Positions 7,324-35,997 of a stretch of DNA of 36,649 nt are shown here, one piece after another. The first letter of the stretch is position 1. Every line of letters starts with the position of its first letter. The notes beneath the pieces are model-generated. The model was not told where the DNA came from. It was given only the letters and a program-made list of their open reading frames with translations, and made no database searches. Made by a program: the position numbers and the translations under genes. The DNA comes from a virus: IMG/VR virus record IMGVR_UViG_3300029319_000172, positions 1 through 36,649 of that record. One strand, written 5' to 3'.

Positions 7324-7524
7324 CTATAGTTTATTTATAATTAGTTCGTTCAGAAGTCCCTTGAGAGTATCTATCTCAGATTTGAGAGCATCTATTTCCG
7401 ATTTCTCAGTTAATTTTTTGTTTCTCATCTTTTTATATCGCATGTATCCAGAAGTATCGCAATTTATGATTGCTCCTGTTTTTTCATCACGATAAAGATG
7501 TTTATGTCCGTCTACTCGTATCAT
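7324..7524 (-). CDS. Small coiled-coil protein (66 aa)
   Basis: A 66-residue protein whose first half (MIRVDGHKHLYRDEKTGAI and a CDTSGYMRY segment) is compact and whose second half, from KKMRNKKLTEKSEIDALKSE onward, is a helix with regular Leu/Ile spacing, most likely a coiled coil. I recall very similar short proteins ('VDGHxxLYRDxxTGAI') in cyanophage structural regions; no function is known to me. The start overlaps the stop of the 2422-aa gene as ATGA. Its last bases overlap the late promoter of the next transcription unit. Confidence 0.85.
   Translation of the reverse strand: MIRVDGHKHLYRDEKTGAIINCDTSGYMRYKKMRNKKLTEKSEIDALKSEIDTLKGLLNELIINKL
7332..7339 (-). promoter_or_regulatory. T4-type late promoter TATAAATA
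   Basis: A perfect TATAAATA on the minus strand, 30 bases upstream of the ATG of the 113-aa gene and inside the 3' end of the 66-aa gene. In T4-like phages this octamer is the only promoter element used by the gp55 late sigma factor with gp45/gp33. It gives the 113-aa, 75-aa and fibre genes their own late start. The leader (TAAACTATAGATC...GCATAA) contains no Shine-Dalgarno sequence. Confidence 0.85.
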
Positions 7525-13500: not shown

Positions 13501-14789
13501 CCACTTCCTTTTCTTAGATTTCTTAAAAGAATAGTTGAATTTGCATAATTATTATTCAAACCTATCTCTGGTGTTCCATGAACATTATTTAATTTGAATA
13601 GAGTTCCAAGTTTAAAATTAACTTTAGCGTCTTTGAATTCCTCTTTATCTCTGGGTTTGTCAACATCAATTACACTTGTGCCGGATTTTTCAATATCATG
13701 ACCTCTTACATACGCTTTACCCGGAGAAACTTTAACACACATTAATGATTCTTCTGGTGTATTTCTCTGATCTGTTTGTTCAGTCTCTAAAAATACACCT
13801 TCATTTGATACACCATCATTTAAACACTCAGTTACTTCAACATCAAAGTTTCCTACTGAATAATTTCCAGATTCTTCGTATGTTCTCTTTGCAAAATAAT
13901 CTTTTATGAGTGAATAATCAGGTTTTTGCTCACTTTTCTTTAGTTGTCCATTATCAAGACGAAGTAATTCTACAAAATTCTTATCGTTATAATCAGTTAG
14001 TGGTTTTTTGGTTAAAGTTGTTCTTATTTTTAATCTATCAGCACCGGGTGCAGCAAAGTTTGAGAAACCCCGTGCATTATCAAATAGTGAGGGATCATCC
14101 TTTGCTTGAACTATTTCCTCTTGAATAAACAATCCAACTCTATAACTCGGTGTATTTGTATATGGATCTAAAACAATTTTATCAGAAGATACGTTAACAA
14201 AGTGACCACGAATGAAAAATACACCATCTGCAATTGAAACTGCTGATCCTACGCTTGATGCATCTTGATCTATAAGAGATGCAACTGTTTCTCCAGCAGT
14301 AATTTGAGTATTTCCGTAAATAAATGACTCTTCAACAATTAAATTTTCTGCATCTGTCATGAAGGAGACTTCATTATTAGTTCCAGAATCAAGATATTTT
14401 ACAAATAATGTTAAATCTGTTATATCTGCAGAATCTTCAGGAAGAGCAAAATTATCAACTTTTATTCTTATACCACTTTCTTGTCCCTGTAAAACCTTAC
14501 CTTTTAAATTTTGTAAATATCCTGATACTGGAACACCTAAATGGTCACTTTGCACCTTAACTGAATAATACTCATAGTCATAACTTGTGTTTCCGGGGAT
14601 AACCATTGATCCCTCTTTGAACATATGACTACCAAATGATTCAACCTGATCTTGTAATATTGATTGTAGTGTCGTTAATTCACGAGCTTGTACTGGTCTA
14701 CCCGGATTGAATAGAACCCTATAGAACTGATTATCCTTGGAAAAGTCGTCGTAATATGGACTTATATTTAAATTCGTTTTTTGTGGCAT
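7521..14789 (-). CDS. Giant virion structural protein, DUF4815-type (2422 aa)
   Basis: The N-terminus (NLNISPYYDDFSKDNQFYRV, LFNPGRPVQARELTTLQSIL, then SFGSHMFKEGSMVIPGN) is the signature of DUF4815-type structural proteins of marine myoviruses. A second conserved block near residues 1314-1343 contains HIRSRNVAFNASSLKPTTRF and YPFFD. Near 1540-1600 there is a PPPPPQP hinge followed by an NVT-rich helix-like repeat and DPLAQSF. Between and after these lie Gly/Thr-rich beta segments, one GxGYT pair around 9020-9270, and one 'VNNEIMKY...ISERGISGT' module. The C-terminal part reads as a jelly-roll-like domain. It follows gp8 where T4 has genes 9-11, so it probably belongs to the baseplate periphery and fibre attachment. 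It starts three bases after the gp8 stop. Confidence 0.88.
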   Translation of the reverse strand: MPQKTNLNISPYYDDFSKDNQFYRVLFNPGRPVQARELTTLQSILQDQVESFGSHMFKEGSMVIPGNTSYDYEYYSVKVQSDHLGVPVSGYLQNLKGKVLQGQESGIRIKVDNFALPEDSADITDLTLFVKYLDSGTNNEVSFMTDAENLIVEESFIYGNTQITAGETVASLIDQDASSVGSAVSIADGVFFIRGHFVNVSSDKIVLDPYTNTPSYRVGLFIQEEIVQAKDDPSLFDNARGFSNFAAPGADRLKIRTTLTKKPLTDYNDKNFVELLRLDNGQLKKSEQKPDYSLIKDYFAKRTYEESGNYSVGNFDVEVTECLNDGVSNEGVFLETEQTDQRNTPEESLMCVKVSPGKAYVRGHDIEKSGTSVIDVDKPRDKEEFKDAKVNFKLGTLFKLNNVHGTPEIGLNNNYANSTILLRNLRKGSGNNPGPAGAGAGGGIGRARIYAFENTDAAYKDATTQFDLYLYDIQLFTKITVNVALSNSELPVGSFVEGLSSGATGFAVSAGGNNTDHSLDQVSGTFIEGEQVRINGDNSLTRSITTVLKNGLEDVMSVAQEDTFISGADFSGDLVLKEVPIKELSPADRVNVSGSNMICAGKTFDSLKVNDILISNTSTAADPSFSRITAISADLKTVTLAAATAVTGVNSASIATGGAPIRKGVPQIFLNDAGLYAELQKKNVSDVSLAQSKLFIKSQVEKSASSNSLVVNISDVTDISSATFATFDADRYSISKKTTTDTRHQTLEESQVVLSNNNTTITFNNIDNGAKVVNVTLEKDLISQKSKNISRSNSIVINKTNAGIATHGLTTATGYGLRVQDKEISLNTPEVFNVTGVFESVNNADPILDKLVFVSGLALNSNTILGERIKGASSGAIAVLAGQTNATTVEIVKLTQSNFIIGESITFDESNITANLQGTIAGLFKDVSTNYILDDGQRDEYSDYSRIVRKDGSTIPSKRIRVIFDKFTVPSNDTGDVFTVGSYPANGFKNVPILSNGLRASDTLDFRPKVADYTGSSSPFAFESRAFDASGSNPTLVVAPNEASTLDFKFFLPRIDKLILDASDSSDNAYTSGEFQIIKGVSSQNPIVPADVETAMTIGTIELPAYLYDTDDVKITLVDNRRYTMRDIGGLEDRIETLEELTSLSLLELDTKTLQIQDADGLSRFKTGFFVDDFKNTNLLDRLNPDCKCDVISSSQQLVTPTDFYSVKPELALDVSLNSSTADFSQNLALLDSGVRKTGDLITLDYDEVTMLEQPLASRVENVNPFNIVTFRGRMILSPSADTWTRNVILDDGTRTVLGDTNETFTNDRIVSSVPDTHIRSRNVAFNASSLKPTTRFYPFFDSASGIDVIPKLIEVSMDSGSFDVNETVEGFDGATRVFVARTCAPNHKTGSISSPTTVYTQNPYNSGLTLPSLYSASSTVLNIDISGLVEEAQGRFFGYIETGIKLVGSTSGATATVSNIRLISDTLGDLNGSFFFRDPLATPVPQLRFTNGTKTFKLTSSATNSRPLLGSPSISEVEQTYRTSGVVDTFRQSTVVVRIPPPPPQPVVFNITNVTEEITQNITNVTEVTNVTNVTQNVRNVTEVVRETVRVVRVDPLAQSFTVDESGAFLTSVDLFFKSKDVREKLTVQIRTVELGIPTLVLLQDYAQVVLEPSQVNVSDDASVATRVTFPSPVYLEGGQEYAVVLLSPSSDNYEAWIGRMGESTIETQSLPDAESVVISKQYIGGSLFKSQNGSIWTASQFEDLKFTLNKADFSKSRDAEVIFYNPELNYESSLIPTLGNNAIRTLPRKMKVKIDTGATASEIAVGKRIGAGVAGVANTTPNGVVERLGGVVSGESLEAGGSGYKASLSGQTASTFNITGNGTGLTLDVSSGSDGVMTGAAINAAGSGYSVGDLVGIVTSTLGAGQQSGSGAVFSIDSISATDTLYLTDVQGQTFSNNAALLHFNGTNFVALTGNKLVDGTVNTPIDALHAGNVIEITQYNHGMHSGNNKLEISNIQPDTQPVILNAAVGLSTSVLLLDDPASGANATLPFAEFEGKPTTSGFVKVNNEIMKYTTVDSSNESLYISERGISGTAIREHAKGSLVYKYELNGFSLTGINTDHQLPSTSLLRTQSDIDKYYIEVPRSAGRVTGDDMMNFFTDSFGGGNQIFVSQNIQFNQIYPRFNHITPGQTALSARTRTISGTSAGGSEVSFLDQGFEDVQLNTINTLSTPRLVASPINETERLDDLPLNRSNTLSIRLLSGDKNLSPVIDTMNGSIIYIRNRLNKPVDDYALDSRVKLNSNDPHAGVYISNRVDLKQPATSLQVLINAQKAESADFRVMYKLFNSEIPDGEQSYDLFPGFDNLLDTDGDGFGDQVINAAQNSGRPDAKVGSSVDGEFLEYQFTADNLSEFTGFVIKVVFSGTNEAEAPRLNDLRAIALA
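10010..10175 (-). repeat. Polyproline hinge plus NVT-rich repeat in the 2422-aa protein
   Basis: The encoded sequence runs from IPPPPPQPVVF through a stretch of about 40 residues in which 'N-[VI]-T' recurs (NITNVTEEI, EVTNVTNVTQNV, RNVTEVV) to RETVRVVRVDPLAQSF. Hydrophobic residues fall every three or four positions, as in a trimeric coiled coil. At DNA level the short units gttacgttagttac and ttcagtgacgtttgtaat recur. It probably forms a rigid trimeric rod between two globular parts. Confidence 0.7.
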
Positions 14790-16386: not shown

Positions 16387-19300
16387 TCATGGTGTGTGAG
16401 ACCTCTTAATTGCACCAGTATTACGGATACCAAAACCTCTTCTTTGAATAACAGGGAAGGTTGAAATTCCTAATCCTTCACCTGCAATGACAGTGTTTCC
16501 AGTGACTCCGATTGCAATTGGATTATTTCTGTTAAAGTTACCAGATGATGGAGTGAGAACACCAAATGAGAACTTACCTCTCTCAGAACTCTTGACAATG
16601 ATCTGTCCATACATTGCATTTGGATGCGATGTGCACTGATAGAAGAAGGTAGTTCTACCTGCTCCAACTGTTGCTGTATTCCATACAAGTGTTCCTGTTC
16701 CAGAACCAGTGATTCCTGTTGTGTAATTTGATCCACCCAATTCTCTTCTTATAGCGATAGGATGTGCACCGCTACCATTAACTATACTCAAAACATCACC
16801 TTTTTCAACATAAATTGTACCATTATTTGCATTTGATAAACTTGTTTGTGTTCCAAATTCATCTCTGTGTGCACCGTTCAAAATATAATTTGAATTTGCA
16901 TTCGCAGTAAATGTAACAGCAAATGCTACATTTGCGTTTGCTAAATCAATTCCGGTGATATTTGTATTTGAATGAACATTAACCTCAATCTCAGCTGCGT
17001 TTGCATGTCTAGTAATATTCTTAATCATGTAAACATTATCAACAAATGTTCTACCAATCGCAACAACATCTCCATTTGCACCACTTTCATTCAAACTTGT
17101 AATTCCATGTCCGACGGATGTATCAGAAATGTAAATCGGCATAGTTTCCTTCAAGTTAGTGAAAGCACCACTTCTTGAAAGTCCAAACTTAAGACCCATT
17201 GTTGATCCAATCATAACAGTAGAAATACCTGTAACTATTCCTGAGAATCCAGTAAAGTCTGAATTTGAAGTATCAATTGACTCAATTAATTCAGTGATGG
17301 GTTTGTGTGCAAATGCGATTACATTTGGTGTGATAGATGTTGAATACCCTATACCACCACTATTAATAGTAACTGATGTGATTGTTCCATTTGTAATATT
17401 CGCAGTTGCCACAGCAGTTGATCCAATACCAGTGGCAATTGGTGATACCTTCATTGCAACTGGTGGTTGTGAAATATGAAGGGAAGTTGAGTTACCCACA
17501 TAACCACTTCCTCCATTTGCAACTGATATTGCTGAAATTGTTCCAGCGGTTGATACTGTTGCTGTAAATGAGGCAGATACTGGATTGTTATTATTAATAA
17601 TTAAAGCATCAAAATTGATATCATTGATTTGTCCATCTTCATTTGCTTCATATTGGAAAAAATTAGCATCATCAATGTAAATTTTACTTGTGCTGCCAGT
17701 GCCAATATCACCAATGATTCTTGCTGTTGGGAATACTAAAGGTTCAATTGAATCTCTTGCTTTGGAAACAACGATACCATTTACGACTTTATCCTCTTTC
17801 TGTTTGATCCATGTAAGAGGTTTGTTTGTTGCTGAATCATTGATACCAACTCCTGCATAAATTTCAGTTTCAAGTGTATCTGTAGTTGTGATACCAGACA
17901 CAGTTCTCTTTCTCTGCTGAAGGTCAATTAGTAATCTTGTGCCCTGACTTGTTAAGGAACTTGTATCATCATTTGCTTGTAGTTGAACAACATCACCATC
18001 TTTTATGGTTTCTACAACATTAATTTCAGTAACATCTTCAGAAGCAGTCCCTTTATAGAAGAACACTGAGATTTCATCATTTGCATCAGGTGCTGTTGTA
18101 AATTCAAATGTAGTTCCACCCTCAAATGAATATGCTACACCGGGATCTTGTAATACATTATTGACGTAAATGATCAATAAAGCATTCATATCAATTAATT
18201 GGGAATCAGTTCCAGTTCCAATATCAAAACTTAGTAGTTCACCATTTACTCTTAATGGGAATCTCTTTCTAACTCCATCCTGTAAATTACCGATAGGATC
18301 AATAAAGTCAAATTCACCAAAATCCCATGCAGCAAATTTATCATTATAAATTTCAGTGACTTCTAAGATATAATCTTCAAGGTCAGCACCTCTTGCAGTG
18401 ACTAAACCTACAGGTTTGAATTTATCACCACGTTTGAAAGCATATCCGTTTCTAGCAATATCAAATGATGTTACTGCAAATAATGTTGATCCTATTCCAA
18501 CTGTTGAACTTGCACCAACATTAAGTGTGACAAGAAGATTATTACCGGTTACAGTTGATGCAACACCATTTCTTGATACACCAATAATTGACATATTTTC
18601 ATAATTTGGTTCAGGGAATTGTAATCTTGGATTAACATAATTTGTACCAGCAGCACCTATGTTTACATCAAGTGTTCCACCAATACCAATATTTCCTGTT
18701 GCAGAGGCACCTGTACCTGCTCCACCACCTACACCAACAAAGATAGTAATTATATTACCACTAACTGCTGTTATAGCTGTTTGTATTCCAGCGATTGGAT
18801 CGGGTAATCCTGTAGTTTTAGAGAGTGCACGAGGATATGCATGATTTGATGCAAAATTATCTCTTGAACATGTAAATACGATACCCCCGGTATCAATACC
18901 AACTGTATCACTTGTGGTTAATCCATGTCCGTTTAAAAGTGTGATATCTAAGAGTCCTGTATGTGATGTATAAACTGCGTCTTGGATTGTGTATGTGTTA
19001 TTGGAATTAGTTGCAGAATTAAGTGATCCTATTCCAGCACTCACAAATCGATGTTCATATGCCAAATCGGTGATACCAATTGCAACTGTCCCCCCAACTG
19101 GTCGATATCCAGATCCAAATGATAAAGTTCCGGGTGGTCTTGATGGTGAAACTGATTCATTGTAAATCGTGGAACCTATACCTACAGCGGTGATTCCTCC
19201 AAACTGATTTAATACTGCAGTTACAGCAGCACCAACTAATGGAGCAACTCCTAATCCACCGGTAGATGCTAGTGAAACTACTTTACCTCCTCTTGGAAGT

Positions 19301-22300
19301 TGGTTTTGATTTACATCTAATTCACTAATTATCTGATTATTTGTACCGAATGATGATATACCTGTAAATTCAATATCTTGTGCTGTTGTTCCAACTCCAA
19401 CAAAAACATAATTATTACTCAAATTATTTTCAGTAGTTGGTTTTTGGAATATACCATTAATTAAAACAAGGGAACTTCCAGTTGTAATACCAGTTGTATT
19501 AGCACCACCAACTTTCATTCTAAATGTGGCACCTATACCAGTAAATTCAGTCGATAAATCATCAAATATTCTGTTATTAGTATATGTTTTTCTAAGATAA
19601 GTTCTACCTTGGAATACTGATCTTGCAGTATCAAGATTTCCAAGAGTTTTAGCAATATTATTAGTTCCTCTAGGAGCATTTGTAAAGAATATATCAGATC
19701 CAATGATATTAAATGAACCAGAGAACACTCTACCAGTTGTATTATTATTGTGAGCAGCAGCGTTTGTTCCAAGTTTTGCTCTTTCAACACCAAGAATATC
19801 AAATGTTCCAATACCAGATACAGGCCCTGTAGAGGTAGTTGCGATACCCACAGATGTTACAAGCATAAATTCATCTGCAAACTTAATGTGATCACCTAGA
19901 TTAATATCAGCAGTTGTGTTTACACATAGATCAGTGGTTGTAGTTGATATACCACTACCTGCATTATTCACTAACGTCGTTGTAACGGGTGAAAATGCCA
20001 TTGGTGATTGAATGATACCATCTATTACAATGATGCTCTTCTCAGTTCGTTTACTCATAGTTAAACGATGAGAATTACCAGCACCAACATTTGTAAATGT
20101 AACAGCAGACCCACCTCTTGTTGTTGCAAGTTGGAATGTACTGTTCGATAATTTTTTAACAAATACTGTAGAAGGTAAATTTGAACCACCAGTCATTTGT
20201 AACGCAGTTGCACCAACACCAGCAAATGTTGATAATGGTGTATAAATTAACTGTTCATTTTCAGAGAAGAAATGATTTGGTATTGTAAATACACCTGTTG
20301 ATCTGTTTAGTTTTGAAGTATCTTCAGGATCAAATCCTTTTTCATAAATTGGAATCGTATTATGTCTTAAGGTAAATTGTTTTTTATTAGATCTTATACC
20401 ATTGACTGCATTGTACTGGAATGCTGATAATGATTCATTAACACGACCATAACCTAAAGTGGGTGGATTGTTTAGTATATCGATATCTCTATACACCTCT
20501 TCACTGAACACCTGAATAGTATGTGCACCTGTTCCTGAATCTGGATGGAATTTAACAACAAAATTAGATGATGTAAGGTTAGATGAGAATGTACCAATAC
20601 CAGAAGTACTACCGATTGAAATAAATGGATAGTGTATGGTATGAGTATCTGTTCCATCATGTATTCCTAGAACCTGATGAACAGCACTCGCTGTTGCTGA
20701 TTTAATTCTTACAATACTCTTTACTGCACTGAAATTATTTTTGTCGAGTGAAACAACATTTGAGATTGAAGAATTTGCTATAGATGTAATTCCAGATCTT
20801 AAATTTATTGTTCTCTCTGCACCAGCAGGTTGTGCGTCATCCTTAAATCTATAAACAGCATTACCACCTGTTGTATTAAATCCAATAACTTTCGCATTAA
20901 TTCTAACAGTCGATGCAATTCCAACAGAATTATCAAAATCTAATGATAATACGTTATTGTGTATTCTTGACCTGAAAGTTCCAATAAAATTAGATGATAA
21001 GTTATTTTGTGATGATGTATCTGCATAATATTCACTGAAATATGAGTTACTTCCATCATGAGTGGCATAAACATCTACATGGTTCTTTTCACCAGATATC
21101 GTATTTACAACCTCTACAGTAGCATAGAAAGCATCAACAGATGTGGTTGATCCTGTTGCTATAGGCTCTGCTGTTGTACCCACGCTTACTACTGTAGATA
21201 GACCAACTAAGTTAACTAATCCAATCGCTTGAGTACCACTTCTTAGATTTTGTTCGTTAAAACTATTCTTATAGACCTTAATGTCAATATCATCATTATT
21301 TGGATCTGTAGGTGAAACAACTAAATTTCTACTACCATTAACAGTTTTTCCTTCAACTTCAACAATATTGCTTGTAGCAGAAACAACACTATTTTTTTCA
21401 AAAGTAAATGTATCAGTATTATCATTAAAAATAACAATATCGTCTACTTGTATTTCACCATTTGATATGTTTCTAGACTGTATTAAGAATCTTACAAAAG
21501 TTTCTTGTATAGGAATAGAAATGTTTCCTGTCAAGTTTGCTTCACTGTCAGAAAATTCACTGCTTATATCATCAATTTTAAGAACTCTGTTGGTATCACA
21601 CTGTACAAAATTTGCTAATTTAGTGTTTACAAGTTGAATAAATTTAGATTTAGATCCATTATCAATGGTGTCAATATCTCTACCTAAATCAAAGTTATTA
21701 ATAGCATCTACTCTCTGTTCAGTCACCACATCAGCGGATACAGTGGTTACGTTTGATGAATCAATTCCAACCGATGCTCTTGATGAAATACCAGTGTCAG
21801 CAAAATTCTTCAATCCACTTGTGTGAATTAATCTGTTTACGGGATCGATAATTTCATCAAATGTCTTTGGACTTTGAATAGTATATGATAAATTTTGATG
21901 ATAATTATTATCTGCTAGTACCATAAAGTCTTCACTCAATCTACCAATCTCATCATTCCAACCTTTATCTTGTGTCAAAGAATAATCAATAATAAATCTA
22001 CCACGATTGTTAACGATTGAGTTAATTGTAGCGATTGTACCTGAGTTTTCTCCACGAATTGTATCACCAACTTTTACTTCAAATTTTCCTTCTATCTTAA
22101 TGAATTCATCAGGACGATTATCGATAACAATGAGTCCTGTAGTAACAAATGCATTATTAATCTTAACTGCTAATTTTTCCCCAGTTCTGAACTCTGAAGT
22201 TTTTTGTGTAGTATTAAATCGTGGATAATCAGTAAATTTAATTATCGTTGCAAAATTTTGTGTAGATGCTGCAATACCGGGATTAGTATTTGTGCTTGGT

Positions 22301-25300
22301 AGTTTGAATTTGACAATCGCTGGATCAGTATTATTGTATTCAATTACATCAAAGAATATAAATCCATTATCCGCTGAGTTTAAACCAATACCAGTTGTAC
22401 CAATACCAATATTTTCAACAAAAACTTGTTCTCCTGCAGTGAACTGAGGAACAGCAAATCCATTTATCGGTGTTTTTAAAGTACAAGTGACAACACCACT
22501 ATTTGCACTACTTTGAACATCTGTTACTTTATATCCATTTGTATTGTTTATTGTCCTTAAAATTTGTGGTTTTGATGTTAATCCTCTAGGTGATTCTAGA
22601 ATTTCTACGTTCCCAAGAGAATTAGCTGCTAAGTCTAAGGTAATTACCCCTTGATCGTCTGTTAACTTACCTGTATCTGGATCAACAATAACTAAAGTAG
22701 GAGCATCAGTATAATTTCTACCACCATCAGATATTTCAATATTTGTGATTGAATCTGAATTTATGAGGGTAACTGTAGGTGACAACCTTGCTTCTGGTTG
22801 TAACGTTTTATCAGAGTGATAATCAAAACCGGGATCAGTGATTCTAACTTCATTTATTTTGTTTATATTTTGAGATAAACATAAAATATTCTCACCAGAT
22901 CCGTTATCACTTGTAACACTTGTAACTCCGGGAACATTCTTATATCCAAATCCACCTGAGATAAGGTCTACTCGACTAATACCACCAGTAGCAGTTAAGG
23001 AAGTTGTGTCATATGTGATCGTTGATGATGCACCAACTGAATATGAACCCTGTTCTGGAACATCATTAAGTGATATGTTAAATCCACCAGTAGTTACACC
23101 AAATGCAACATATGTACCATTATATTCACTATCAACATATGATATTTGTGATGCATTTTTAACATCAGGATCAGATGTGCTTATAAATCCTGACTTTTCA
23201 AGTGTATAGAATAATTTTTCTGGGTTCGATTTATCAAATGATAATGTAACTGTTGAAGTTGTTCCAACTCCTACAGCTCCAACACCACTTACACTAAAAC
23301 TAGTTGTCGATCCAGAGGATACAAATCTATTATTGAAGTTTTTATCAAAGAAGAAATTTAACTCATAACCGTTTAATGATGGATCAGAAACATAAAATAC
23401 TAAATTATCATTTCTTACAATTTCAAGAGGAGGATTAACTAAAGATAGTTCTTGTGTTCCACCACTATTCGATGTGATATTCACTGTGTTTGGTGGTTCG
23501 ATCATCACATCATATCTTGTTTCTCCAAGTTTAAAATTACTATCATCAGATCTATAAACAAAATATGATCTCTGTGATGTTAGACCTGTTGCTGGACTAC
23601 CATCATAGAATAATTTTTGACCAGTTTTAAATCCATGATTTGCAATATTAATAGAATTTGTGTTAACTGATGAATTTGTAAATGATATTGGATTTATAAG
23701 AAGTTTATCATTCTGTGCATTGTATTTCACTACAACTGAAGTAGAACCTGAACCTACACCTTTTGACTGAGTTGATTGTAAATTAATGGAAACAGTATCA
23801 TTATTTTGCATTCCATGTAAGGTTGATCCAGCAGATACAGTTGAAATACCAACAGTAGCGGTGATTCGTTCAACCTTTCCTTTAACTTGAGAGAAATTTG
23901 ATTCTATAGAATATTCAAAGTTATCAAAATTTCCTATGACATTACCATTTTTAAAGAAAACAGCAGGTGTGTTTGCTGTCAAAGCAAGTCCTACAAGATC
24001 ATTTGAAAATTTGCGTATATAAACAACTGTGCTATTACCTGATAACAAATTAAAATCAGTGCCAACTTGGAAACTATCACCGAGACCGATTGTAAATGCG
24101 TTGGTGGGTGATGTTGTTGGTCTTCTTAAGATAACTTCTTGATTATCTTCAAAAGGATGATTTGGTAAAAATATGGATTTTGCTGGTATTGAAATTACTT
24201 CTGATCTTTCACCAGTTGTGTAAGACTTACCTATAGAAACAGTCCTACCAACTGTGTTTGCTACACCAATTGCCTCACATGGGTTAAAATAAACAATATC
24301 ATTTTTCCTAGATACAAAATCTCCAATATTTTGTGTTTGAATATCAAAAGTTTGAGGAATCGTTTCTACTAAACTACCTATGGTATGAGATGCAGTATTT
24401 GCAGATCCTACAATACCTCTCTTGACTCTCAAGATATTTCTCTCATCAAATTTATTCAATACCAATAATTTTTCTGTTCCGATTCCAATACTACTTCCAA
24501 CTGATACAGAATTAGGGATTCTCGCTAAGTAAATATCAGTTATGATACCTGCAGTATTACTTGCTGGTAAATCCTTATATAATACTGTCCTTTCAGATGT
24601 AACTCCAATCTTATGTGATCTTGATAACTTAGAAATATCAGTTGTAACACCTGAAATTACCACAACATCATTTGTATTTAAATTATGAGATGTTGATATG
24701 AATCCTGAAACTGTTCCATTTCCACCTTTAACAAAGACAACATCGTTATATGTTGTCACACCTACAGTAATATTATCAACATCTTTACCTAAGACATGAG
24801 ATACCCTTGCTGCTGCACCACCACCATCTGTGTTAGAATTATCAAAATTTAAACTATCATTTACTTTAAAATCACTTCCTGCAGAAACAATTTGGAAACC
24901 ATTTATATTTCCACTTGTTACAGATTCAATAATTGATGTTTGTTGATTTATTTCGTAAGATTCAACAACAAAATTGTAATCTGCATTTTCATCATCCAAT
25001 TTGTAGGGGAGTGAGTTACGAGTTAAATTAGAATTATTAAAATCAAATAATGATTGTGTTAAAAGTGAATTTTCAGAAACAAAATCCGATCTATATGTAT
25101 CACCGATGAAGTATGGGAATACAGGTGCTGAAGATACAGAAGAAATACCAGCAAAATATGCATAAGTTCCATTTGGAAAATCTGGAGTTTTACAATAACG
25201 ACCGTTACTTTGATCTAGATCACCAGTATCATTAAATGTATGATCTTCTATGAAAAACCCTGCAGCAAAATCACTCGTACTAGGTCTATTAAATACTTTA

Positions 25301-28300
25301 GATGAATCAAGTTGATATCCACTTCTCATAACTCTTGATAGAGAGTTTTGATTATTCGCTTCACTAAATCCGAATGGCCCATATATTGGATTACCATCAT
25401 ATGCCCATCCAATGATTGGTGAGTGTAATTGTGGACTTGTTACGTTATCATCAAAAGCACTTTGAACCTTATTTGAATAACCAACAACAGAATATTGTAA
25501 ATTTGTTTCTGCCTCTCTTAAAAGTATTTCATCACCAAATCGAGTGAGGTTGTTTACAGTTAAATCTCTTACAGCACTATCAATTATAAATCCAGAACCG
25601 TTTGGAGTTATTTTAACATCTGGAGCAACTGTATATCCAATTCCGGGATTAATTACCTTTACATCAGTTATCTTTCCATCAGAAACAATCGCTCTTAATT
25701 TACCACCTATTCCAGTTCCAATTCCAACTAAATCTAGATCTGGTGCGGATGTATATTCCTTACCACCAAACATTACATCACATCCAATTATTTTTCCATC
25801 AAAAACTATTGCTCTTAACTCTGCATTTTTACCATTTAAAACTTTAATATTTGGTTTTTTCTCAAAATTCAAAATATTTGAACCATAATTTGTTCCGGGT
25901 TCGTGCAAATAACCATCTACTAATTTTCCTCGTATTATAGGTGTGACAACTAAAGATTCAGTTCGACCTGCAGATACTGGAGAGTAAATTGCATTTACAT
26001 TTACTACTATTGGTTCAAAGAAAAATTGATGATTGCTTAATGATGATACTTCTGATATTCTTGTGAAATTTTTTCTTACAAAATTATTATCAGGATCTGT
26101 TGCACCAATACCTACATCAATAAGTCTAAATTTATTATTATCAAGTTTATGAACACGATATCTTGTCGTAACACCGAGTCCTATCGGAGCGTGACTAGCA
26201 TTTCCACTTGTGGGTGCATACTGAATTAAATCACCTGATACAAACCCATGATCTTTAAAGTTAATAGAGTTATCAATCGTTGAAATACCGACTGGTTTTA
26301 CAATTAATTTTCTATTTGTATAATTTGTGCCTTTATTAAGAACCTTAACGGATTTAAGATGATTTTTAAGATTTAAAAACGTAAATTTATGATCACCACC
26401 AGTATTTTCAACTGTAAAACCAACTGTATTGATACCAGCATTATAATCACTTAATTTTTCATACAAGTAAACAGAACTTACACCAACAACTTGAGGATAG
26501 TAAGTTGCTCCGTTTATAAGAGTTTTGTTTTGAGCAGTATTTGAACCTCTAAAAGTTCCGACTCCTATCGATGGATTACCATTGTTATGATATACAAGAG
26601 GTTCTCCATTTTCTAGATTGTGAGGTTTTTTAAATTCAATAATATCATTTATTTGATCTACACCACCTTGAACATTTTTTAATCTCCCATCAAATGCAAT
26701 TTCTCTTTGTCTTTTAACAACAACAGGTTTGATAACAGCACCAGATCCATTACCACCGGATACTGTGATTGACATTACTCTTTCTACATCAAAGTCTTGT
26801 TGATCAACCAACATCTCTTCAATAGAACCACTAACAACAGGTTGCACAAGTGCTGTTGTTCCAGTTCCGGGTGAGGGAATACTAATTGTTGGTGGATTAA
26901 CTACATCAAAATTCTTTCCTTGATTTAGTATCTTAATATCTGATAATGGGCCAAAATAAATCTTGTCTAATGACTTATAATTTGCTATCTCTACACCATT
27001 TTTTAATATACCTGTAGTTCCTGCCTCAGTTTTTACTGATGTTCCAGATTTTATGTTAACCTCTGCAGGAAACTTTTTTAAAACTTTTTGAACACCAATT
27101 TGCTCATTTCTATGCCTTAATAAAATAAATTTATGTTCTTGTGTAGATGATGAACTTGAAATATCAAATTCAATGTATGGTGGATTTGATGGTTCAACAT
27201 TAGTAACTGTAATAAATGATCTGGATGGGAAAAGTCTTAATACATTTTTTGCCAAACCACTTGAATCCAGAACTTCAACATAATATATTCCACCACTCTC
27301 TAATCCAACTAAAGGTTGCTCATTTGGTACATATACAATAGCATCACCTGTTATAAAGTCAACAGGTGTGTTAAATTGTAATCTAGAGTATAAACCAGTG
27401 GTAAGATTTTTTTCAAGTAATTGAAATGTACCACCATTTGTTCCTAAAGAATCTGCTTGAGGGACACCAGTGGATGTATGCACGGTTCCGATTCCTGATC
27501 CAAGTGTTTCTTTAATTACTTTCTTTTCAATGGTATATGAGGGCATAGATGATGATGCCACATAGTAATTTTCATCCTGATCATTATAAGTATTCTGTAC
27601 ATCAGTGGTGATGACATCATTTCCAAATTCTAAATCAATATCAGATGCAGCATTTGCTTTTTTTAATTCCCTTTGAATATCATATTCGGTGATGCCATTA
27701 TTTGTTATTGATGTATTCAAGTCAATATCATTCGCGTTTACTGTAACAGTAACACCTGTTTCTACTGGTGTTAAACTACCCCTAGTATAGATTGAAACTT
27801 TATCTCCAGTTTTAAGTTGAGATTTATCAATTACAGATTTATGATTAACAGTTGATGTGGTTGAACCTATACCTACGTTTGAAGGGATGTCTATTTTAAT
27901 TCGACTCGCTGTATTGTATATCCATGAGTTAAAAAATACTGTTTTTCTAGTTCTCTTGCTTGGAAGTGTTGGATTAGGAATCTCTTCTCCTAAATTTTTA
28001 ACAGTTATTTTTTCACCCTCAAGAGTTACACTTGAACCTTCACTTGGAAGAAGTTTAAATTCAGATAAAACTCCTGTAATTCTTAGTTCTACACGTTTAG
28101 TTAAATCACCATTCTCATATCCAAATATAAATTCATCACTTCTTAAATCATCAGCCGATCTTATTGAGTTGCCAATTCCGCTACAATGAAGAAACTGATT
28201 TATAGTTTTGTCGCTATAAGTTATGGTATTAATACCATTAACACCATTAGTCACTACTGTGCCTGTAGTTCCAAACCCAACCGTAGAATCAACAGTTAGT

Positions 28301-29283
28301 GTGGTTGTATTTACGGGAGCGTCTTCTATTACTCTTGTTTTACCGGGAATCGTAAATGTTCCTTGTATCGCTGATCTCTCATCATATCCTACAAATAGAT
28401 TCAACTTGTAGTATGTTGTAATACCTAAGTTACCAGACCTACTAAAAATTTCTACCTCAGATACTGATCCAGAAGTATTTAAATCTGTTGATTTAGTTAT
28501 AGTTTGACCCACTAACTTATTAGGATCACCTGAAATTTGTTCTGCTACTACAACTTCTCTACGAATATATTCGGATGATGATGGTTTAATAAGAAAATTT
28601 TCTAAATCTATAATCTTTGGTGTAATCCCGTATAAAACATTAAATAAAATACGGAAAGACTCCTCTGTCCCTTTAGATTTGTATAAGGATTTAGACTCTT
28701 TTATGAAATTACTTAAATCTACATTCGTGTTTAATTTTGTATCTTCTAGACCGGGTGTAAGATATGACTTAACTTTTTGATAAAATTCTTTTAAAAATAG
28801 AACACTTAGATTTTCAACAGTCGAAGAAGAATCATGAGAACTCGCAACACTTGTTGAAAATACAAGTTCACCTTTATTAATAGGGTCAGTATAAGAAGTA
28901 ATACCACTAAAACCTCTCACACAACCAGTGAATGAATTAGTTGTAATACCAGTGTATGTAATTATCTCATCATCAATCTTAAATAATCCATACTCATTTG
29001 GAAAACCTTTTGTGGATGAAACATTAACTGTGGTATTTGATGTTGTGATGCCAGATGTGAGTGTAGTAACTCCGACAATAACTTCAGGAGTAAGATTATC
29101 AAGCTTGATATATTGATCTAAATTGTCACTAATATCCAGAGAACCACCACGGTGTTCCTGAGAAATATAATATTGCTTTAGAAAATCGACAGTTAATGGA
29201 CTCTCTGCAGTGATAAACTCAGGGAGTTGATTTTCTATTATTTGCTGAACTTGTATACGTTTGTCTATTCCAGTTCCAATCAT
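16387..29283 (-). CDS. 7: Giant baseplate wedge protein, gp7-like (4298 aa)
   Basis: It lies between gp6 and gp8, the place of T4 gene 7. About residues 196-265 match the C-terminal part of T4 gp7: ESKSLYKSKGTEESFRILF, then NVLYGITPKIID, against SRSYDFYSTKGIEASYKFLF and KVLYNEEVEIE, and LVGQTITKST against LVGQTIYTAT. gp7 is the large wedge protein that links gp6, gp8 and gp10. T4 gp7 has 1032 residues; here the N-terminal part is short and the C-terminal extension is about 4000 residues. That extension is mostly Gly/Ser/Thr-rich beta sequence with GxGYT repeats, several 'IDDEI...RG' modules, a YHYH-like domain (about 1290-1400), 'LLIIYVNNVLQDPGVAYSF' fibre units and a cupredoxin-like domain (about 4119-4231). 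The frame is open throughout. The start overlaps the gp6 stop as ATGA. Confidence 0.9.
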   Translation of the reverse strand: MIGTGIDKRIQVQQIIENQLPEFITAESPLTVDFLKQYYISQEHRGGSLDISDNLDQYIKLDNLTPEVIVGVTTLTSGITTSNTTVNVSSTKGFPNEYGLFKIDDEIITYTGITTNSFTGCVRGFSGITSYTDPINKGELVFSTSVASSHDSSSTVENLSVLFLKEFYQKVKSYLTPGLEDTKLNTNVDLSNFIKESKSLYKSKGTEESFRILFNVLYGITPKIIDLENFLIKPSSSEYIRREVVVAEQISGDPNKLVGQTITKSTDLNTSGSVSEVEIFSRSGNLGITTYYKLNLFVGYDERSAIQGTFTIPGKTRVIEDAPVNTTTLTVDSTVGFGTTGTVVTNGVNGINTITYSDKTINQFLHCSGIGNSIRSADDLRSDEFIFGYENGDLTKRVELRITGVLSEFKLLPSEGSSVTLEGEKITVKNLGEEIPNPTLPSKRTRKTVFFNSWIYNTASRIKIDIPSNVGIGSTTSTVNHKSVIDKSQLKTGDKVSIYTRGSLTPVETGVTVTVNANDIDLNTSITNNGITEYDIQRELKKANAASDIDLEFGNDVITTDVQNTYNDQDENYYVASSSMPSYTIEKKVIKETLGSGIGTVHTSTGVPQADSLGTNGGTFQLLEKNLTTGLYSRLQFNTPVDFITGDAIVYVPNEQPLVGLESGGIYYVEVLDSSGLAKNVLRLFPSRSFITVTNVEPSNPPYIEFDISSSSSTQEHKFILLRHRNEQIGVQKVLKKFPAEVNIKSGTSVKTEAGTTGILKNGVEIANYKSLDKIYFGPLSDIKILNQGKNFDVVNPPTISIPSPGTGTTALVQPVVSGSIEEMLVDQQDFDVERVMSITVSGGNGSGAVIKPVVVKRQREIAFDGRLKNVQGGVDQINDIIEFKKPHNLENGEPLVYHNNGNPSIGVGTFRGSNTAQNKTLINGATYYPQVVGVSSVYLYEKLSDYNAGINTVGFTVENTGGDHKFTFLNLKNHLKSVKVLNKGTNYTNRKLIVKPVGISTIDNSINFKDHGFVSGDLIQYAPTSGNASHAPIGLGVTTRYRVHKLDNNKFRLIDVGIGATDPDNNFVRKNFTRISEVSSLSNHQFFFEPIVVNVNAIYSPVSAGRTESLVVTPIIRGKLVDGYLHEPGTNYGSNILNFEKKPNIKVLNGKNAELRAIVFDGKIIGCDVMFGGKEYTSAPDLDLVGIGTGIGGKLRAIVSDGKITDVKVINPGIGYTVAPDVKITPNGSGFIIDSAVRDLTVNNLTRFGDEILLREAETNLQYSVVGYSNKVQSAFDDNVTSPQLHSPIIGWAYDGNPIYGPFGFSEANNQNSLSRVMRSGYQLDSSKVFNRPSTSDFAAGFFIEDHTFNDTGDLDQSNGRYCKTPDFPNGTYAYFAGISSVSSAPVFPYFIGDTYRSDFVSENSLLTQSLFDFNNSNLTRNSLPYKLDDENADYNFVVESYEINQQTSIIESVTSGNINGFQIVSAGSDFKVNDSLNFDNSNTDGGGAAARVSHVLGKDVDNITVGVTTYNDVVFVKGGNGTVSGFISTSHNLNTNDVVVISGVTTDISKLSRSHKIGVTSERTVLYKDLPASNTAGIITDIYLARIPNSVSVGSSIGIGTEKLLVLNKFDERNILRVKRGIVGSANTASHTIGSLVETIPQTFDIQTQNIGDFVSRKNDIVYFNPCEAIGVANTVGRTVSIGKSYTTGERSEVISIPAKSIFLPNHPFEDNQEVILRRPTTSPTNAFTIGLGDSFQVGTDFNLLSGNSTVVYIRKFSNDLVGLALTANTPAVFFKNGNVIGNFDNFEYSIESNFSQVKGKVERITATVGISTVSAGSTLHGMQNNDTVSINLQSTQSKGVGSGSTSVVVKYNAQNDKLLINPISFTNSSVNTNSINIANHGFKTGQKLFYDGSPATGLTSQRSYFVYRSDDSNFKLGETRYDVMIEPPNTVNITSNSGGTQELSLVNPPLEIVRNDNLVFYVSDPSLNGYELNFFFDKNFNNRFVSSGSTTSFSVSGVGAVGVGTTSTVTLSFDKSNPEKLFYTLEKSGFISTSDPDVKNASQISYVDSEYNGTYVAFGVTTGGFNISLNDVPEQGSYSVGASSTITYDTTSLTATGGISRVDLISGGFGYKNVPGVTSVTSDNGSGENILCLSQNINKINEVRITDPGFDYHSDKTLQPEARLSPTVTLINSDSITNIEISDGGRNYTDAPTLVIVDPDTGKLTDDQGVITLDLAANSLGNVEILESPRGLTSKPQILRTINNTNGYKVTDVQSSANSGVVTCTLKTPINGFAVPQFTAGEQVFVENIGIGTTGIGLNSADNGFIFFDVIEYNNTDPAIVKFKLPSTNTNPGIAASTQNFATIIKFTDYPRFNTTQKTSEFRTGEKLAVKINNAFVTTGLIVIDNRPDEFIKIEGKFEVKVGDTIRGENSGTIATINSIVNNRGRFIIDYSLTQDKGWNDEIGRLSEDFMVLADNNYHQNLSYTIQSPKTFDEIIDPVNRLIHTSGLKNFADTGISSRASVGIDSSNVTTVSADVVTEQRVDAINNFDLGRDIDTIDNGSKSKFIQLVNTKLANFVQCDTNRVLKIDDISSEFSDSEANLTGNISIPIQETFVRFLIQSRNISNGEIQVDDIVIFNDNTDTFTFEKNSVVSATSNIVEVEGKTVNGSRNLVVSPTDPNNDDIDIKVYKNSFNEQNLRSGTQAIGLVNLVGLSTVVSVGTTAEPIATGSTTSVDAFYATVEVVNTISGEKNHVDVYATHDGSNSYFSEYYADTSSQNNLSSNFIGTFRSRIHNNVLSLDFDNSVGIASTVRINAKVIGFNTTGGNAVYRFKDDAQPAGAERTINLRSGITSIANSSISNVVSLDKNNFSAVKSIVRIKSATASAVHQVLGIHDGTDTHTIHYPFISIGSTSGIGTFSSNLTSSNFVVKFHPDSGTGAHTIQVFSEEVYRDIDILNNPPTLGYGRVNESLSAFQYNAVNGIRSNKKQFTLRHNTIPIYEKGFDPEDTSKLNRSTGVFTIPNHFFSENEQLIYTPLSTFAGVGATALQMTGGSNLPSTVFVKKLSNSTFQLATTRGGSAVTFTNVGAGNSHRLTMSKRTEKSIIVIDGIIQSPMAFSPVTTTLVNNAGSGISTTTTDLCVNTTADINLGDHIKFADEFMLVTSVGIATTSTGPVSGIGTFDILGVERAKLGTNAAAHNNNTTGRVFSGSFNIIGSDIFFTNAPRGTNNIAKTLGNLDTARSVFQGRTYLRKTYTNNRIFDDLSTEFTGIGATFRMKVGGANTTGITTGSSLVLINGIFQKPTTENNLSNNYVFVGVGTTAQDIEFTGISSFGTNNQIISELDVNQNQLPRGGKVVSLASTGGLGVAPLVGAAVTAVLNQFGGITAVGIGSTIYNESVSPSRPPGTLSFGSGYRPVGGTVAIGITDLAYEHRFVSAGIGSLNSATNSNNTYTIQDAVYTSHTGLLDITLLNGHGLTTSDTVGIDTGGIVFTCSRDNFASNHAYPRALSKTTGLPDPIAGIQTAITAVSGNIITIFVGVGGGAGTGASATGNIGIGGTLDVNIGAAGTNYVNPRLQFPEPNYENMSIIGVSRNGVASTVTGNNLLVTLNVGASSTVGIGSTLFAVTSFDIARNGYAFKRGDKFKPVGLVTARGADLEDYILEVTEIYNDKFAAWDFGEFDFIDPIGNLQDGVRKRFPLRVNGELLSFDIGTGTDSQLIDMNALLIIYVNNVLQDPGVAYSFEGGTTFEFTTAPDANDEISVFFYKGTASEDVTEINVVETIKDGDVVQLQANDDTSSLTSQGTRLLIDLQQRKRTVSGITTTDTLETEIYAGVGINDSATNKPLTWIKQKEDKVVNGIVVSKARDSIEPLVFPTARIIGDIGTGSTSKIYIDDANFFQYEANEDGQINDINFDALIINNNNPVSASFTATVSTAGTISAISVANGGSGYVGNSTSLHISQPPVAMKVSPIATGIGSTAVATANITNGTITSVTINSGGIGYSTSITPNVIAFAHKPITELIESIDTSNSDFTGFSGIVTGISTVMIGSTMGLKFGLSRSGAFTNLKETMPIYISDTSVGHGITSLNESGANGDVVAIGRTFVDNVYMIKNITRHANAAEIEVNVHSNTNITGIDLANANVAFAVTFTANANSNYILNGAHRDEFGTQTSLSNANNGTIYVEKGDVLSIVNGSGAHPIAIRRELGGSNYTTGITGSGTGTLVWNTATVGAGRTTFFYQCTSHPNAMYGQIIVKSSERGKFSFGVLTPSSGNFNRNNPIAIGVTGNTVIAGEGLGISTFPVIQRRGFGIRNTGAIKRSHTP
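16591..16929 (-). other. Cupredoxin-like domain in the gp7-like protein
   Basis: Residues about 4119-4231 of the gp7-like protein. 'GDVLSIVNGSGAHPIAIRRE' has the typical cupredoxin strand and first His ligand (H4174), and after a beta segment 'YQCTSHPNAMYGQIIV' gives C4217, H4220 and M4224 just before the last strand. The His...Cys-x2-His-x3-Met layout is that of type-1 copper sites (plastocyanin-type proteins have Cys-x2-His-x4-Met). Fold and ligand assignment come from motif reading only; copper binding is not shown. About 67 residues follow the domain. Confidence 0.65.
25080..25425 (-). other. YHYH-like domain in the gp7-like protein
   Basis: About residues 1287-1401 of the gp7-like protein. 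It begins GWAYDGNPIYGPFGF (G at 1292), continues with GDLDQSNGRYC, TPDFPNGTYAYF and ends FPYFIGDTYRS. The 'G.A.DG.PIYGP', 'LD..NGR' and 'P.GTY.Y' order is that of the YHYH domain (PF14240), with YAYF in place of the eponymous YHYH. The domain's biochemical role is unknown to me; in YHYH proteins the His residues have been suspected of metal binding, and they are lost here. Confidence 0.6.
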
Positions 29284-31622: not shown

Positions 31623-31973
31623 CTATCTATTTAGCTGATTCATATTATAGTCATCAGAATCGAAATAATTTAGCAACCACCATGCTACTGAACGTGGATT
31701 TTTTGCTCCACAAGTGAAAATATCGATTGCAACGCACCCTTTTTCGGGCCAAGTATGGCAAGAAAGGTGACTTTCACCTAAAGTTACGGTACAAGTCACC
31801 CCGTAAGGGTCAAATTGGTGCACATATGTGTTTAAAACCTCTAAACCTTCAGTTTTACAAGCACTTTCGCATACTTGTTCGATCTTTTTGGCATCATTTA
31901 ACTTATCAAAGGGTACATTATACACTTCAGTGAGTAAATGTTCGCCCATATGAGCATTTTTGACGTTTTTCAT
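31623..31973 (-). CDS. speD: S-adenosylmethionine decarboxylase proenzyme (SpeD), viral
   Basis: A 116-residue prokaryotic-type AdoMet decarboxylase, full length for the class (about 115-130 aa). It removes CO2 from S-adenosylmethionine to give the aminopropyl donor for spermidine. The self-cleavage site is LGES-HLSCHTWPEKG: cleavage between E67 and S68 would produce the pyruvoyl group; H73 and C88 (in DIFTCGAKNP) are the other expected active-site residues, and all are present. speD is a known auxiliary metabolic gene of T4-like cyanophages and some SAR11 phages. No spermidine synthase is in the window, so the product would enter the host pathway. Its ATG overlaps the 35-aa gene's stop as ATGA, and there is no SD sequence. 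Confidence 0.95.
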   Translation of the reverse strand: MKNVKNAHMGEHLLTEVYNVPFDKLNDAKKIEQVCESACKTEGLEVLNTYVHQFDPYGVTCTVTLGESHLSCHTWPEKGCVAIDIFTCGAKNPRSVAWWLLNYFDSDDYNMNQLNR

Positions 31974-35055: not shown

Positions 35056-35997
35056 CTATCCCCCTGCCATTCGCGAGTATAAGAAGTTGCGTCTGCTGAA
35101 TGTCATGCGATCCACCAGTTTGTAAGTGCCGAACCCATTATCAAATACGTAACCCTCATGCTCTGCTTCATCACCTTGAAAGTAAACTTCTAAACTGTAA
35201 TCATGTCTACACTGATATAACGCAGCAAGTTTGATACAACGAACCAACGACCACAAACGGATCAGGTTGCGATCCACTCCCTCAAACTCAAATGTGTCTG
35301 GGTGAATGTCCTCACCATTACGAATTGCTTTATTAAACGCTTTCTTTAGTTTCGCTGCTGTTTTCTTATCCACGAACTTCACACTCGCTGCGATCTGTCG
35401 GGCAAACTCAACGCGATTGCCCAGTTCAAAACGATCATCTTTGCCTTCTAAGTGGTTATAATATCCTGAGTACATACGACAACGGGGGTGAACGAAACGA
35501 CACGCTGCGGTAGACTTCAACTCACCGTGATTGATTGGCAACCCGTAGACATCTTGCAACCCGTTATCACCGCATAGTTCGTAACGAGTATGGGGAGCAA
35601 CGATTATATCTTCACCCGTATAATCTGGGAATAAGTATGTTAAAGTATTAGGGGTATATTCACGCTCACCACCAAACCCGATCCAGTCGCCTTGATATAT
35701 GTAAGGTGTATCAGGTAGAAACTCAAGACAAAACTGTAAGATGTGAACTAATACGGGAATATGTCCGTAGTAGTGTTCGACATCTTCACCATTATAACAA
35801 ACCTTTGGATCTTTCTTATTAAATACGGACTTCGTACCAACGAACTGGCGACCCGTGACAGGACAACGACCCCAAACGATTGCTGGCGCACCGTCGATCT
35901 TTACGGATAGACGACCAGCAGATTGAAACCAACTCAGTATGTCTAAGTCACCTGTAAGAATGGTGTCCTCTGGGTGTTCTAGATGTTTGTTCTTCAT
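35056..35997 (-). CDS. Ligase/nucleotidyltransferase-like protein (313 aa), DUF6267-type
   Basis: A 313-residue protein carrying, in order, motifs of covalent nucleotidyltransferases: KIDG (K33, motif I nucleophile; SVKIDGAPAIVWGR), VGTKSVF, YQGDWIGFGGE (near 101-111, motif III-like), EGYVF (281-285, motif IV) and TYKLVDR (K293, motif V-like KxK with the second Lys changed to Val/Arg context). In DNA/RNA ligases K33 would carry AMP. I recall cyanophage proteins of this kind (DUF6267); no activity is known to me. No OB-fold C-terminus is evident. The true start is the ATG at 35997, which overlaps the 58-aa gene's stop as ATGA; the TTG at 36006 is in frame but unlikely. GC content is about 46% in four hand-counted lines, clearly above the rest of the window. 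Confidence 0.72.
   Translation of the reverse strand: MKNKHLEHPEDTILTGDLDILSWFQSAGRLSVKIDGAPAIVWGRCPVTGRQFVGTKSVFNKKDPKVCYNGEDVEHYYGHIPVLVHILQFCLEFLPDTPYIYQGDWIGFGGEREYTPNTLTYLFPDYTGEDIIVAPHTRYELCGDNGLQDVYGLPINHGELKSTAACRFVHPRCRMYSGYYNHLEGKDDRFELGNRVEFARQIAASVKFVDKKTAAKLKKAFNKAIRNGEDIHPDTFEFEGVDRNLIRLWSLVRCIKLAALYQCRHDYSLEVYFQGDEAEHEGYVFDNGFGTYKLVDRMTFSRRNFLYSRMAGG

What the first reader, a model, noticed from the sequence alone, without database searches (positions are those of the whole stretch)
35056..35997. Ligase-like protein with KxDG motif and unusually high GC
The gene keeps motifs I (KIDG), III-like, IV (EGYVF) and part of V (YKLVDR) of nucleotidyltransferases but lacks an obvious OB-fold, and motif V is altered. 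Four 60-base lines counted by hand give 111/240 GC (46%), against 55/180 (31%) in three lines of the structural region. It may be an unusual ligase, an RNA-end or cofactor-modifying enzyme, or a protein adenylylation enzyme, and may have a different origin from its neighbours.
Basis: partly seen in the sequence, partly recalled or inferred. Interest (0 to 1): 0.62.

Follow-up and report, generated by a model that had tools for sequence, protein, structure and literature searches.

The report
Overlooked ligase-like enzyme of ocean phages
The gene encodes a small enzyme of unknown function that nearly every T4-like phage of ocean cyanobacteria carries; its predicted shape and its invariant residues mark it as a stripped-down relative of RNA ligases, in phages that lack the ligases tested for here, and long versions of it in related phages carry a tag that should load it into the phage head.

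Summary
35056-35997 (minus strand, 313 aa, ATG) is the GC-richest gene of the window (44.3% against 35.1%; GC3 0.42 against 0.16-0.24 in most structural genes). It keeps KxDG and EGYV, has one motif V lysine, and has no room for an OB domain. It is DUF6267 (PF19782, 1e-70) / phrog_455, called 'hypothetical' almost everywhere yet near-universal in T4-like cyanophages. Predicted structures of this protein and of a divergent long form both match RNA-ligase nucleotidyltransferase domains best (Naegleria RNA ligase Z 9.2 and 8.0). Across 44 diverse members K33, D35, K56, D104, H136, E281, K293 and R297 never vary: the residue set of minimal, OB-less RNA ligases such as RLIG1, although sequence profiles do not link the families. 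Eight cyanophage-type genomes lack the DNA and RNA ligase families tested. The high GC belongs to this phage clade and does not show foreign origin. Beyond the window, long-form DUF6267 is encoded near P-loop kinases, a Pol-beta and a HIGH nucleotidyltransferase; it and the HIGH protein often begin with a T4-type capsid-targeting sequence. The window's protein lacks that tag. Best reading: a minimal nucleic-acid-end adenylyltransferase/ligase, probably for RNA. Substrate and activity are untested.

The parts
35056..35997 (-). DUF6267 / phrog_455 / T4-GC 71 gene, 313 aa: predicted minimal ligase-fold covalent nucleotidyltransferase
   Evidence: T4-GC 71 label from annotated relatives
35890..35901 (-). 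motif I, K33-I-D35-G36, predicted adenylated lysine
   Evidence: K, D, G in 44 of 44 diverse members; follows strand 28-32
35821..35838 (-). motif Ia-like G54-T-K56-S-V-F59
   Evidence: K56 and F59 in 44 of 44
35686..35694 (-). motif III-like Q102-G-D104, Asp in place of the usual Glu
   Evidence: Q and D in 44 of 44; strand 100-108
35581..35592 (-). motif IIIa-like H136-T-x-Y139
   Evidence: H, T, Y in 44 of 44; within strand 131-141; RLIG1 has His195 at IIIa
35212..35433 (-). helical insert (residues 189-262) between IIIa and IV, longer in long-form members
   Evidence: models
35146..35157 (-). motif IV, E281-G-Y-V284
   Evidence: E, G, V in 44 of 44; strand 283-287
35107..35124 (-). motif V, Y-K293-L-V-D-R297, single lysine
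   Evidence: K and R in 44 of 44; strand 290-294

Best explanation
The gene encodes a catalytically intact, minimal member of the ligase-type covalent nucleotidyltransferases (RNA-ligase branch of the fold). Most likely mechanism: K33 attacks ATP to form lysyl-AMP, with D35, D104, H136, E281 and K293 holding metal, ribose and phosphates; the AMP is then passed to a 5'-phosphate end, most probably of RNA, and that end is joined to a 3'-OH. Shown here: family, gene extent, invariance of these residues, predicted fold, purifying selection, and near-universal presence in T4-like cyanophages whose tested genomes have no other detectable ligase of the families searched. Inferred: ATP as donor, K33 adenylation, nucleic-acid substrate, and RNA rather than DNA.
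For: Fold: the window model (pLDDT 82.7, pTM 0.82) has all 50 listed VIA rows among polynucleotide ligases, best Naegleria RNA ligase Z 9.2 / 182 residues / 3.7 A, T4 Rnl2 Z 7.3, Rnl1 Z 6.7; a separate model of a long form with 28% identity to the window protein gives Naegleria RNA ligase Z 8.0, Rnl1 7.0, Trl1 6.8, Rnl2 6.3. Residues: K33, D35, G36, K56, D104, H136, E281, G282, K293, R297 in 44 of 44 members, close to the set of the proven minimal ligase RLIG1 (K, D, motif Ia Arg, III Glu, IIIa His, IV Glu, V Lys; its top DALI hit is also Naegleria RNA ligase; PMC11494293). Selection: dN/dS 0.056-0.125. Distribution: DUF6267 matches 371 'Synechococcus', 61 'Cyanophage' and 24 'Prochlorococcus' phage records; the gp6-like wedge matches 373 and 61 of the first two. 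No other ligase: 8 of 8 cyanophage-type records lack PF09414, PF01068, PF01653 and any over-cut-off PF09511; T4 scores as a control for PF01068 and PF09511; absence of g30 in cyanomyoviruses is noted in PMC2984593. RNA side: long-form loci encode P-loop kinases (AAA_33/zeta/PNK-like, adenylate kinase), a Pol-beta NTase and a HIGH NTase nearby, and PNK plus Pol-beta partners are typical of phage RNA-repair sets (PMC7824862). Stenotrophomonas phage DLP6 has DUF6267 and a DNA ligase but no PF09414.
Against: No sequence-level link: Pfam, PHROGs and PDB searches give only DUF6267 or noise; hhalign to T4 Rnl2 relatives Prob 0.2%; RLIG1 PF17720 no hit. Foldseek E-values are weak (best 0.064), the top Foldseek rows of the long form are not ligases, and Z 8-9 is moderate. 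Motif III has Asp for Glu, and no nucleic-acid-binding domain is recognised. The kinase and Pol-beta neighbours occur at long-form loci, not beside the window's gene. No activity has been measured.
Confidence: 0.6

Rival explanations
1. Ligase-fold nucleotidyltransferase that adenylylates (or guanylylates) something other than a nucleic-acid end: a host protein, a cofactor or a small phosphate ester, in a pathway with the HIGH nucleotidyltransferase.
For: Tight co-occurrence with the HIGH 'cytidyltransferase' (Synechococcus/Cyanophage/Prochlorococcus/Methylophilales records 376/61/24/4 against 371/61/24/4), direct fusion in S-PM2 and adjacency. T4-GC190 was detected in S-SM1 virions (PMC3037559). 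Cyanophages lack alt/modA/modB (PMC2984593), so another delivered modifier could fill that place.
Against: Nearest folds are all polynucleotide ligases; kinase and Pol-beta neighbours point to nucleic-acid ends.
Confidence: 0.22
2. It is the missing DNA ligase of T4-like cyanophages, replacing gp30 in Okazaki-fragment or nick sealing.
For: gp30 is absent from cyanophages (PMC2984593); long-form genes lie in the uvsX-gp41-mazG block; near-universal in the group.
Against: DLP6 carries both DUF6267 and a PF01068 DNA ligase; best fold matches are RNA ligases; host ligase can replace gp30 (PMC2984593); head-targeting tags on long forms make little sense for a replisome part.
Confidence: 0.13
3. Catalytically dead ligase-fold protein kept as a binding or structural protein.
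For: Second motif V lysine missing and motif III Glu is Asp.
Against: All other catalytic positions invariant in 44 of 44 diverse members; low dN/dS; RLIG1 is active with one described motif V lysine.
Confidence: 0.05

Closest known systems
RLIG1 / C12orf29 and Yasminevirus RLIG1 (PF17720)
   Same: Minimal RNA ligase lacking the RNA-binding domain; KxDG, IIIa His, IV Glu, motif V Lys; same nearest solved fold, Naegleria RNA ligase
   Different: No PF17720 match in any DUF6267 phage searched; DUF6267 has Asp at motif III, Lys not Arg at Ia, and a helical insert between IIIa and IV; activity unproven
Naegleria gruberi RNA ligase
   Same: Best fold match of both models
   Different: Its residues before about 141 lie outside the aligned part (it is 335-340 residues long); 9-13% identity
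T4 RNA ligase 2 family (PF09414)
   Same: EGYV at motif IV, similar motif order, fold Z 7.3
   Different: KxHG at motif I, two motif V lysines, about 100 further C-terminal residues; profile comparison finds no relation
T4 internal head proteins IPI-IPIII (for the tag of long forms only)
   Same: Many long-form DUF6267 and HIGH NTases share the capsid-targeting pattern: aromatic at 4 and 7, I/L/V at 8, E at 10
   Different: The cargo here looks enzymatic; the window's own protein has no tag

Membership tests
DUF6267 (PF19782) / phrog_455 | profile match above the curated cut-off over most of the protein | tested here: met
   239 bits against cut-off 27; 352 bits
Covalent nucleotidyltransferase (ligase/capping) superfamily | motif I KxDG with invariant Lys | tested here: met
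   44 of 44
Covalent nucleotidyltransferase (ligase/capping) superfamily | acidic residues at motifs III and IV, basic residue at motif V | tested here: met
   D104, E281, K293 in 44 of 44; III is Asp, not Glu; assigned by order and strand position, not by residue-level superposition
Covalent nucleotidyltransferase (ligase/capping) superfamily | NTase fold | tested here: met
   predicted models only: Z 9.2 and 8.0; Foldseek E not significant
Covalent nucleotidyltransferase (ligase/capping) superfamily | lysyl-NMP intermediate | not testable with these tools
   needs a labelling assay
T4 Rnl2-type RNA ligase (PF09414) | profile similarity | tested here: not met
   no Pfam hit at E 1, none in 10 records, hhalign Prob 0.2%
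RLIG1 (PF17720) | profile similarity | tested here: not met
   0 of 10 records at E 10, nine of which carry DUF6267
DNA ligase (gp30 / PF01068, LigA / PF01653) | profile match, and an OB domain after the NTase domain | tested here: not met
   no match in the 8 DUF6267-bearing cyanophage-type records; about 20 residues after motif V
mRNA capping enzyme | profile match and GTP specificity | tested here: inconclusive
   no Pfam hit; weak Foldseek rows for capping enzymes; nucleotide specificity not testable
T4-type internal head protein (CTS) | 10-residue N-terminal capsid-targeting sequence | tested here: not met
   0 of 82 short forms; the window protein starts MKNKHLEH. 23 of 86 long forms fit strictly, 25 more loosely

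The most novel reading that the evidence does not exclude
DUF6267 is the ligase of a head-packaged nucleic-acid end-processing kit: in many marine T4-like phages the ligase-like protein and the HIGH nucleotidyltransferase (with kinase, Pol-beta or phosphatase parts) bear capsid-targeting sequences, ride in the virion and enter the cell with the DNA, so that repair or modification of cleaved RNA (or of entering DNA) starts before phage genes are expressed. The clade of this window has kept the enzyme but lost, or never had, its tag.
Probability: 0.33. Interest if true: 0.82.

Novelty: new variant of a known kind. Interest (0 to 1): 0.6.

Why it matters
T4-like cyanophages are widespread ocean viruses, and a review noted that they lack the T4 DNA ligase, weighing an unrecognised distant homologue against plain absence (PMC2984593). 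A near-universal gene, whose S-PM2 copy (S-PM2_138) is listed there as an unknown shared gene, now has a concrete, testable prediction: an OB-less ligase-type enzyme with K33 as the adenylated residue. If the head-targeting tags on long forms work, these phages would deliver nucleotide-transfer enzymes with their DNA.

Tried and rejected
Foreign origin from GC: rejected. Sequence-profile link to T4 Rnl2: none. PDB sequence searches with one protein and with two profiles: noise only. Literature searches for DUF6267 and PHROG_455: no papers in the library; 'cytitidyltransferase' with cyanophage: none. Apparent bacterial homologues: L093 (Nonlabens assembly) reads as T4-like phage DNA; the other ten genome-contig loci were not checked gene by gene. 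Foldseek on the long-form model: ligase rows not on top, helical rows prominent, so VIA was read alongside it. A strict capsid-targeting pattern misses many tags that look related by eye (38 of 86 long forms match neither pattern, about half of them with a similar tag).

Full report
What is there. The window is a 36.6 kb fragment of a T4-like marine phage: terminase small subunit, gp15-like tail sheath stabiliser, gp6-like and gp25-like baseplate wedge genes, SpeD. The finding's gene runs 35997 to 35056 on the minus strand, 313 aa. It is DUF6267 (E=1.3e-70) and phrog_455 (E=2.6e-104), both of unknown function.

GC. The close relatives L002-L012 also have 42-45% in the gene and 36-39% around it, and keep the gene order phrog_9580, DUF6267, phrog_661, hemagglutinin-like (not found in L008), GT, ferredoxin-like, SpeD, gp25, gp6 as far as the contigs reach. 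In most distant relatives gene and flank GC agree. So the GC is a clade habit set against very GC-poor structural genes, not a sign of recent foreign origin. dN/dS against close relatives is 0.056-0.125.

Distribution. tblastn finds DUF6267 in 461-472 phage records depending on query and E limit, nearly all T4-like cyanophages, plus pelagiphages, Methylophilales phages, Stenotrophomonas phage DLP6 and a few Vibrio and Pseudoalteromonas phages. By organism name, 371 Synechococcus and 61 Cyanophage records have it, against 373 and 61 with a gp6-like match; the counts were not joined record by record. At least 594 IMG/VR stretches encode relatives. There are short forms (about 300 aa, this window) and long forms (about 395-410 aa) with a longer helical insert.

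Fold and active site. The window model (41 sequences, pLDDT 82.7, pTM 0.82) has only weak Foldseek E-values (best 0.064), but the first 19 PDB rows are DNA or RNA ligases or a capping complex, and VIA gives Naegleria RNA ligase Z 9.2 with all 50 listed rows ligases. A second model, of long form L095, gives Naegleria RNA ligase Z 8.0, then Rnl1, Trl1, REL1 and Rnl2, with some helical chance matches to the insert. Order of elements: strand, K33xDG, strands, two helices, strand with QGD104, strands, H136TxY, helical insert, E281GYV, strand with K293, final helix. The motif residues are invariant in 44 diverse members. This set fits RLIG1, whose crystal structure shows a minimal ligase lacking the RNA-binding domain, with motif III Glu, IIIa His and a motif V Lys (PMC11494293). 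Motif letters were assigned by order and strand position; no residue-level superposition was available. Sequence profiles do not connect DUF6267 to Rnl2 or RLIG1, so it is filed as working like them, not as a member.

Why a nucleic-acid ligase. Eight cyanophage-type genomes with DUF6267 have no PF09414, PF01068 or PF01653 match and no PF09511 match over cut-off, whereas T4 scores for PF01068 and PF09511 (T4 was not in the PF09414 run). PMC2984593 states that g30 homologues are not found in cyanomyoviruses and weighs an unrecognised distant homologue against absence, preferring absence. DLP6, which has DUF6267, has a PF01068 ligase but no PF09414 match, which speaks against a plain DNA-ligase replacement. 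At the long-form loci read gene by gene, nearby genes encode an adenylate kinase, a zeta/PNK-like kinase, a Pol-beta nucleotidyltransferase fused to a HIGH nucleotidyltransferase and, once, a PAP2-Pol-beta-HIGH fusion. Kinase plus Pol-beta NTase plus ligase is the set described for phage RNA repair (PMC7824862). The HIGH protein is fused to DUF6267 in S-PM2, lies in 55 of 80 long-form loci of the viral collection, and occurs in all eight genomes tested, unlinked in P-SSM2 and SynMITS9220M01.

The tag. Many long-form DUF6267 proteins start with MFSFKGFITKE, MQDFQDYLTED, MKNFRQFLTES and the like before KNTHLEHLED. A weight matrix from these tags ranks T4 ipI first and ipII/ipIII about seventh and eighth of 270 T4 ORFs; one trained only on HIGH-NTase N-termini ranks ipIII, ipII and ipI 1-2-3 (identities). 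In T4 the mapped capsid-targeting sequence needs residues 4 and 7 above all for targeting and 8 and 10 for processing (PMC9026906). The pattern M..[FY]..[FY][ILV].E fits 2 of 339 T4 ORFs (ipII, ipIII), 0 of 251 in HTVC008M, 23 of 86 long-form DUF6267 (25 more loosely) and 18 of 70 HIGH proteins (15 more loosely), but 0 of 82 short forms; the window's protein starts MKNKHLEH. The pattern was written after seeing the tags, and many tagged sequences are close relatives, so these counts are not independent. The HIGH protein T4-GC190 has been detected in S-SM1 virions (PMC3037559); no such report for DUF6267 was found.

Verdict. Ligase-fold nucleotidyltransferase: about 0.9. Nucleic-acid end ligase or adenylyltransferase, probably RNA: about 0.6. 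Head-packaged kit (in long-form phages): about 0.33. The window's own protein, being untagged, most likely acts in the cytoplasm after expression (inference).

Noticed in passing
L119:7183-9924, L124:8942-11251, L155:2125-4836 and other long-form loci: HIGH 'cytidyltransferase' proteins have varied N-terminal fusions (zeta/PNK-like kinase, Pol-beta NTase, PAP2 phosphatase), several behind a capsid-targeting-like tag.
   Followed up: partly
L093:5166-5945, L086:1923-2981, L085:1881-2966, L088:1578-2921, L224:7070-7987: The gene just upstream of DUF6267 at these loci is filled by different unknown families (phrog_1462, phrog_26930 and others); some look PD-(D/E)xK-nuclease-like by eye, one carries a tag (MQGFKTFLSEA).
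   Followed up: no
L093 (Nonlabens xiamenensis assembly, 188 kb contig): T4-like phage genes (DNA polymerase, UvsX, gp41, MazG-like, DUF6267, HIGH NTase by sequence) sit in a flavobacterial genome assembly: prophage or carried-over phage.
   Followed up: no
H8ZNG8 in BFVD / JN371769.1, Synechococcus phage metaG-MbCM1: A 728-aa protein that matches DUF6267 is annotated 'NrdB ribonucleotide reductase A subunit', evidently a misannotation.
   Followed up: no
window 16387-29283 and 7521-14789: Two very long ORFs (4298 and 2422 aa) with GC3 0.16 lie among the tail and baseplate genes; not identified.
   Followed up: no
window 31623-31973: S-adenosylmethionine decarboxylase (SpeD), E=7e-34, next to the gp25-like wedge gene.
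   Followed up: no
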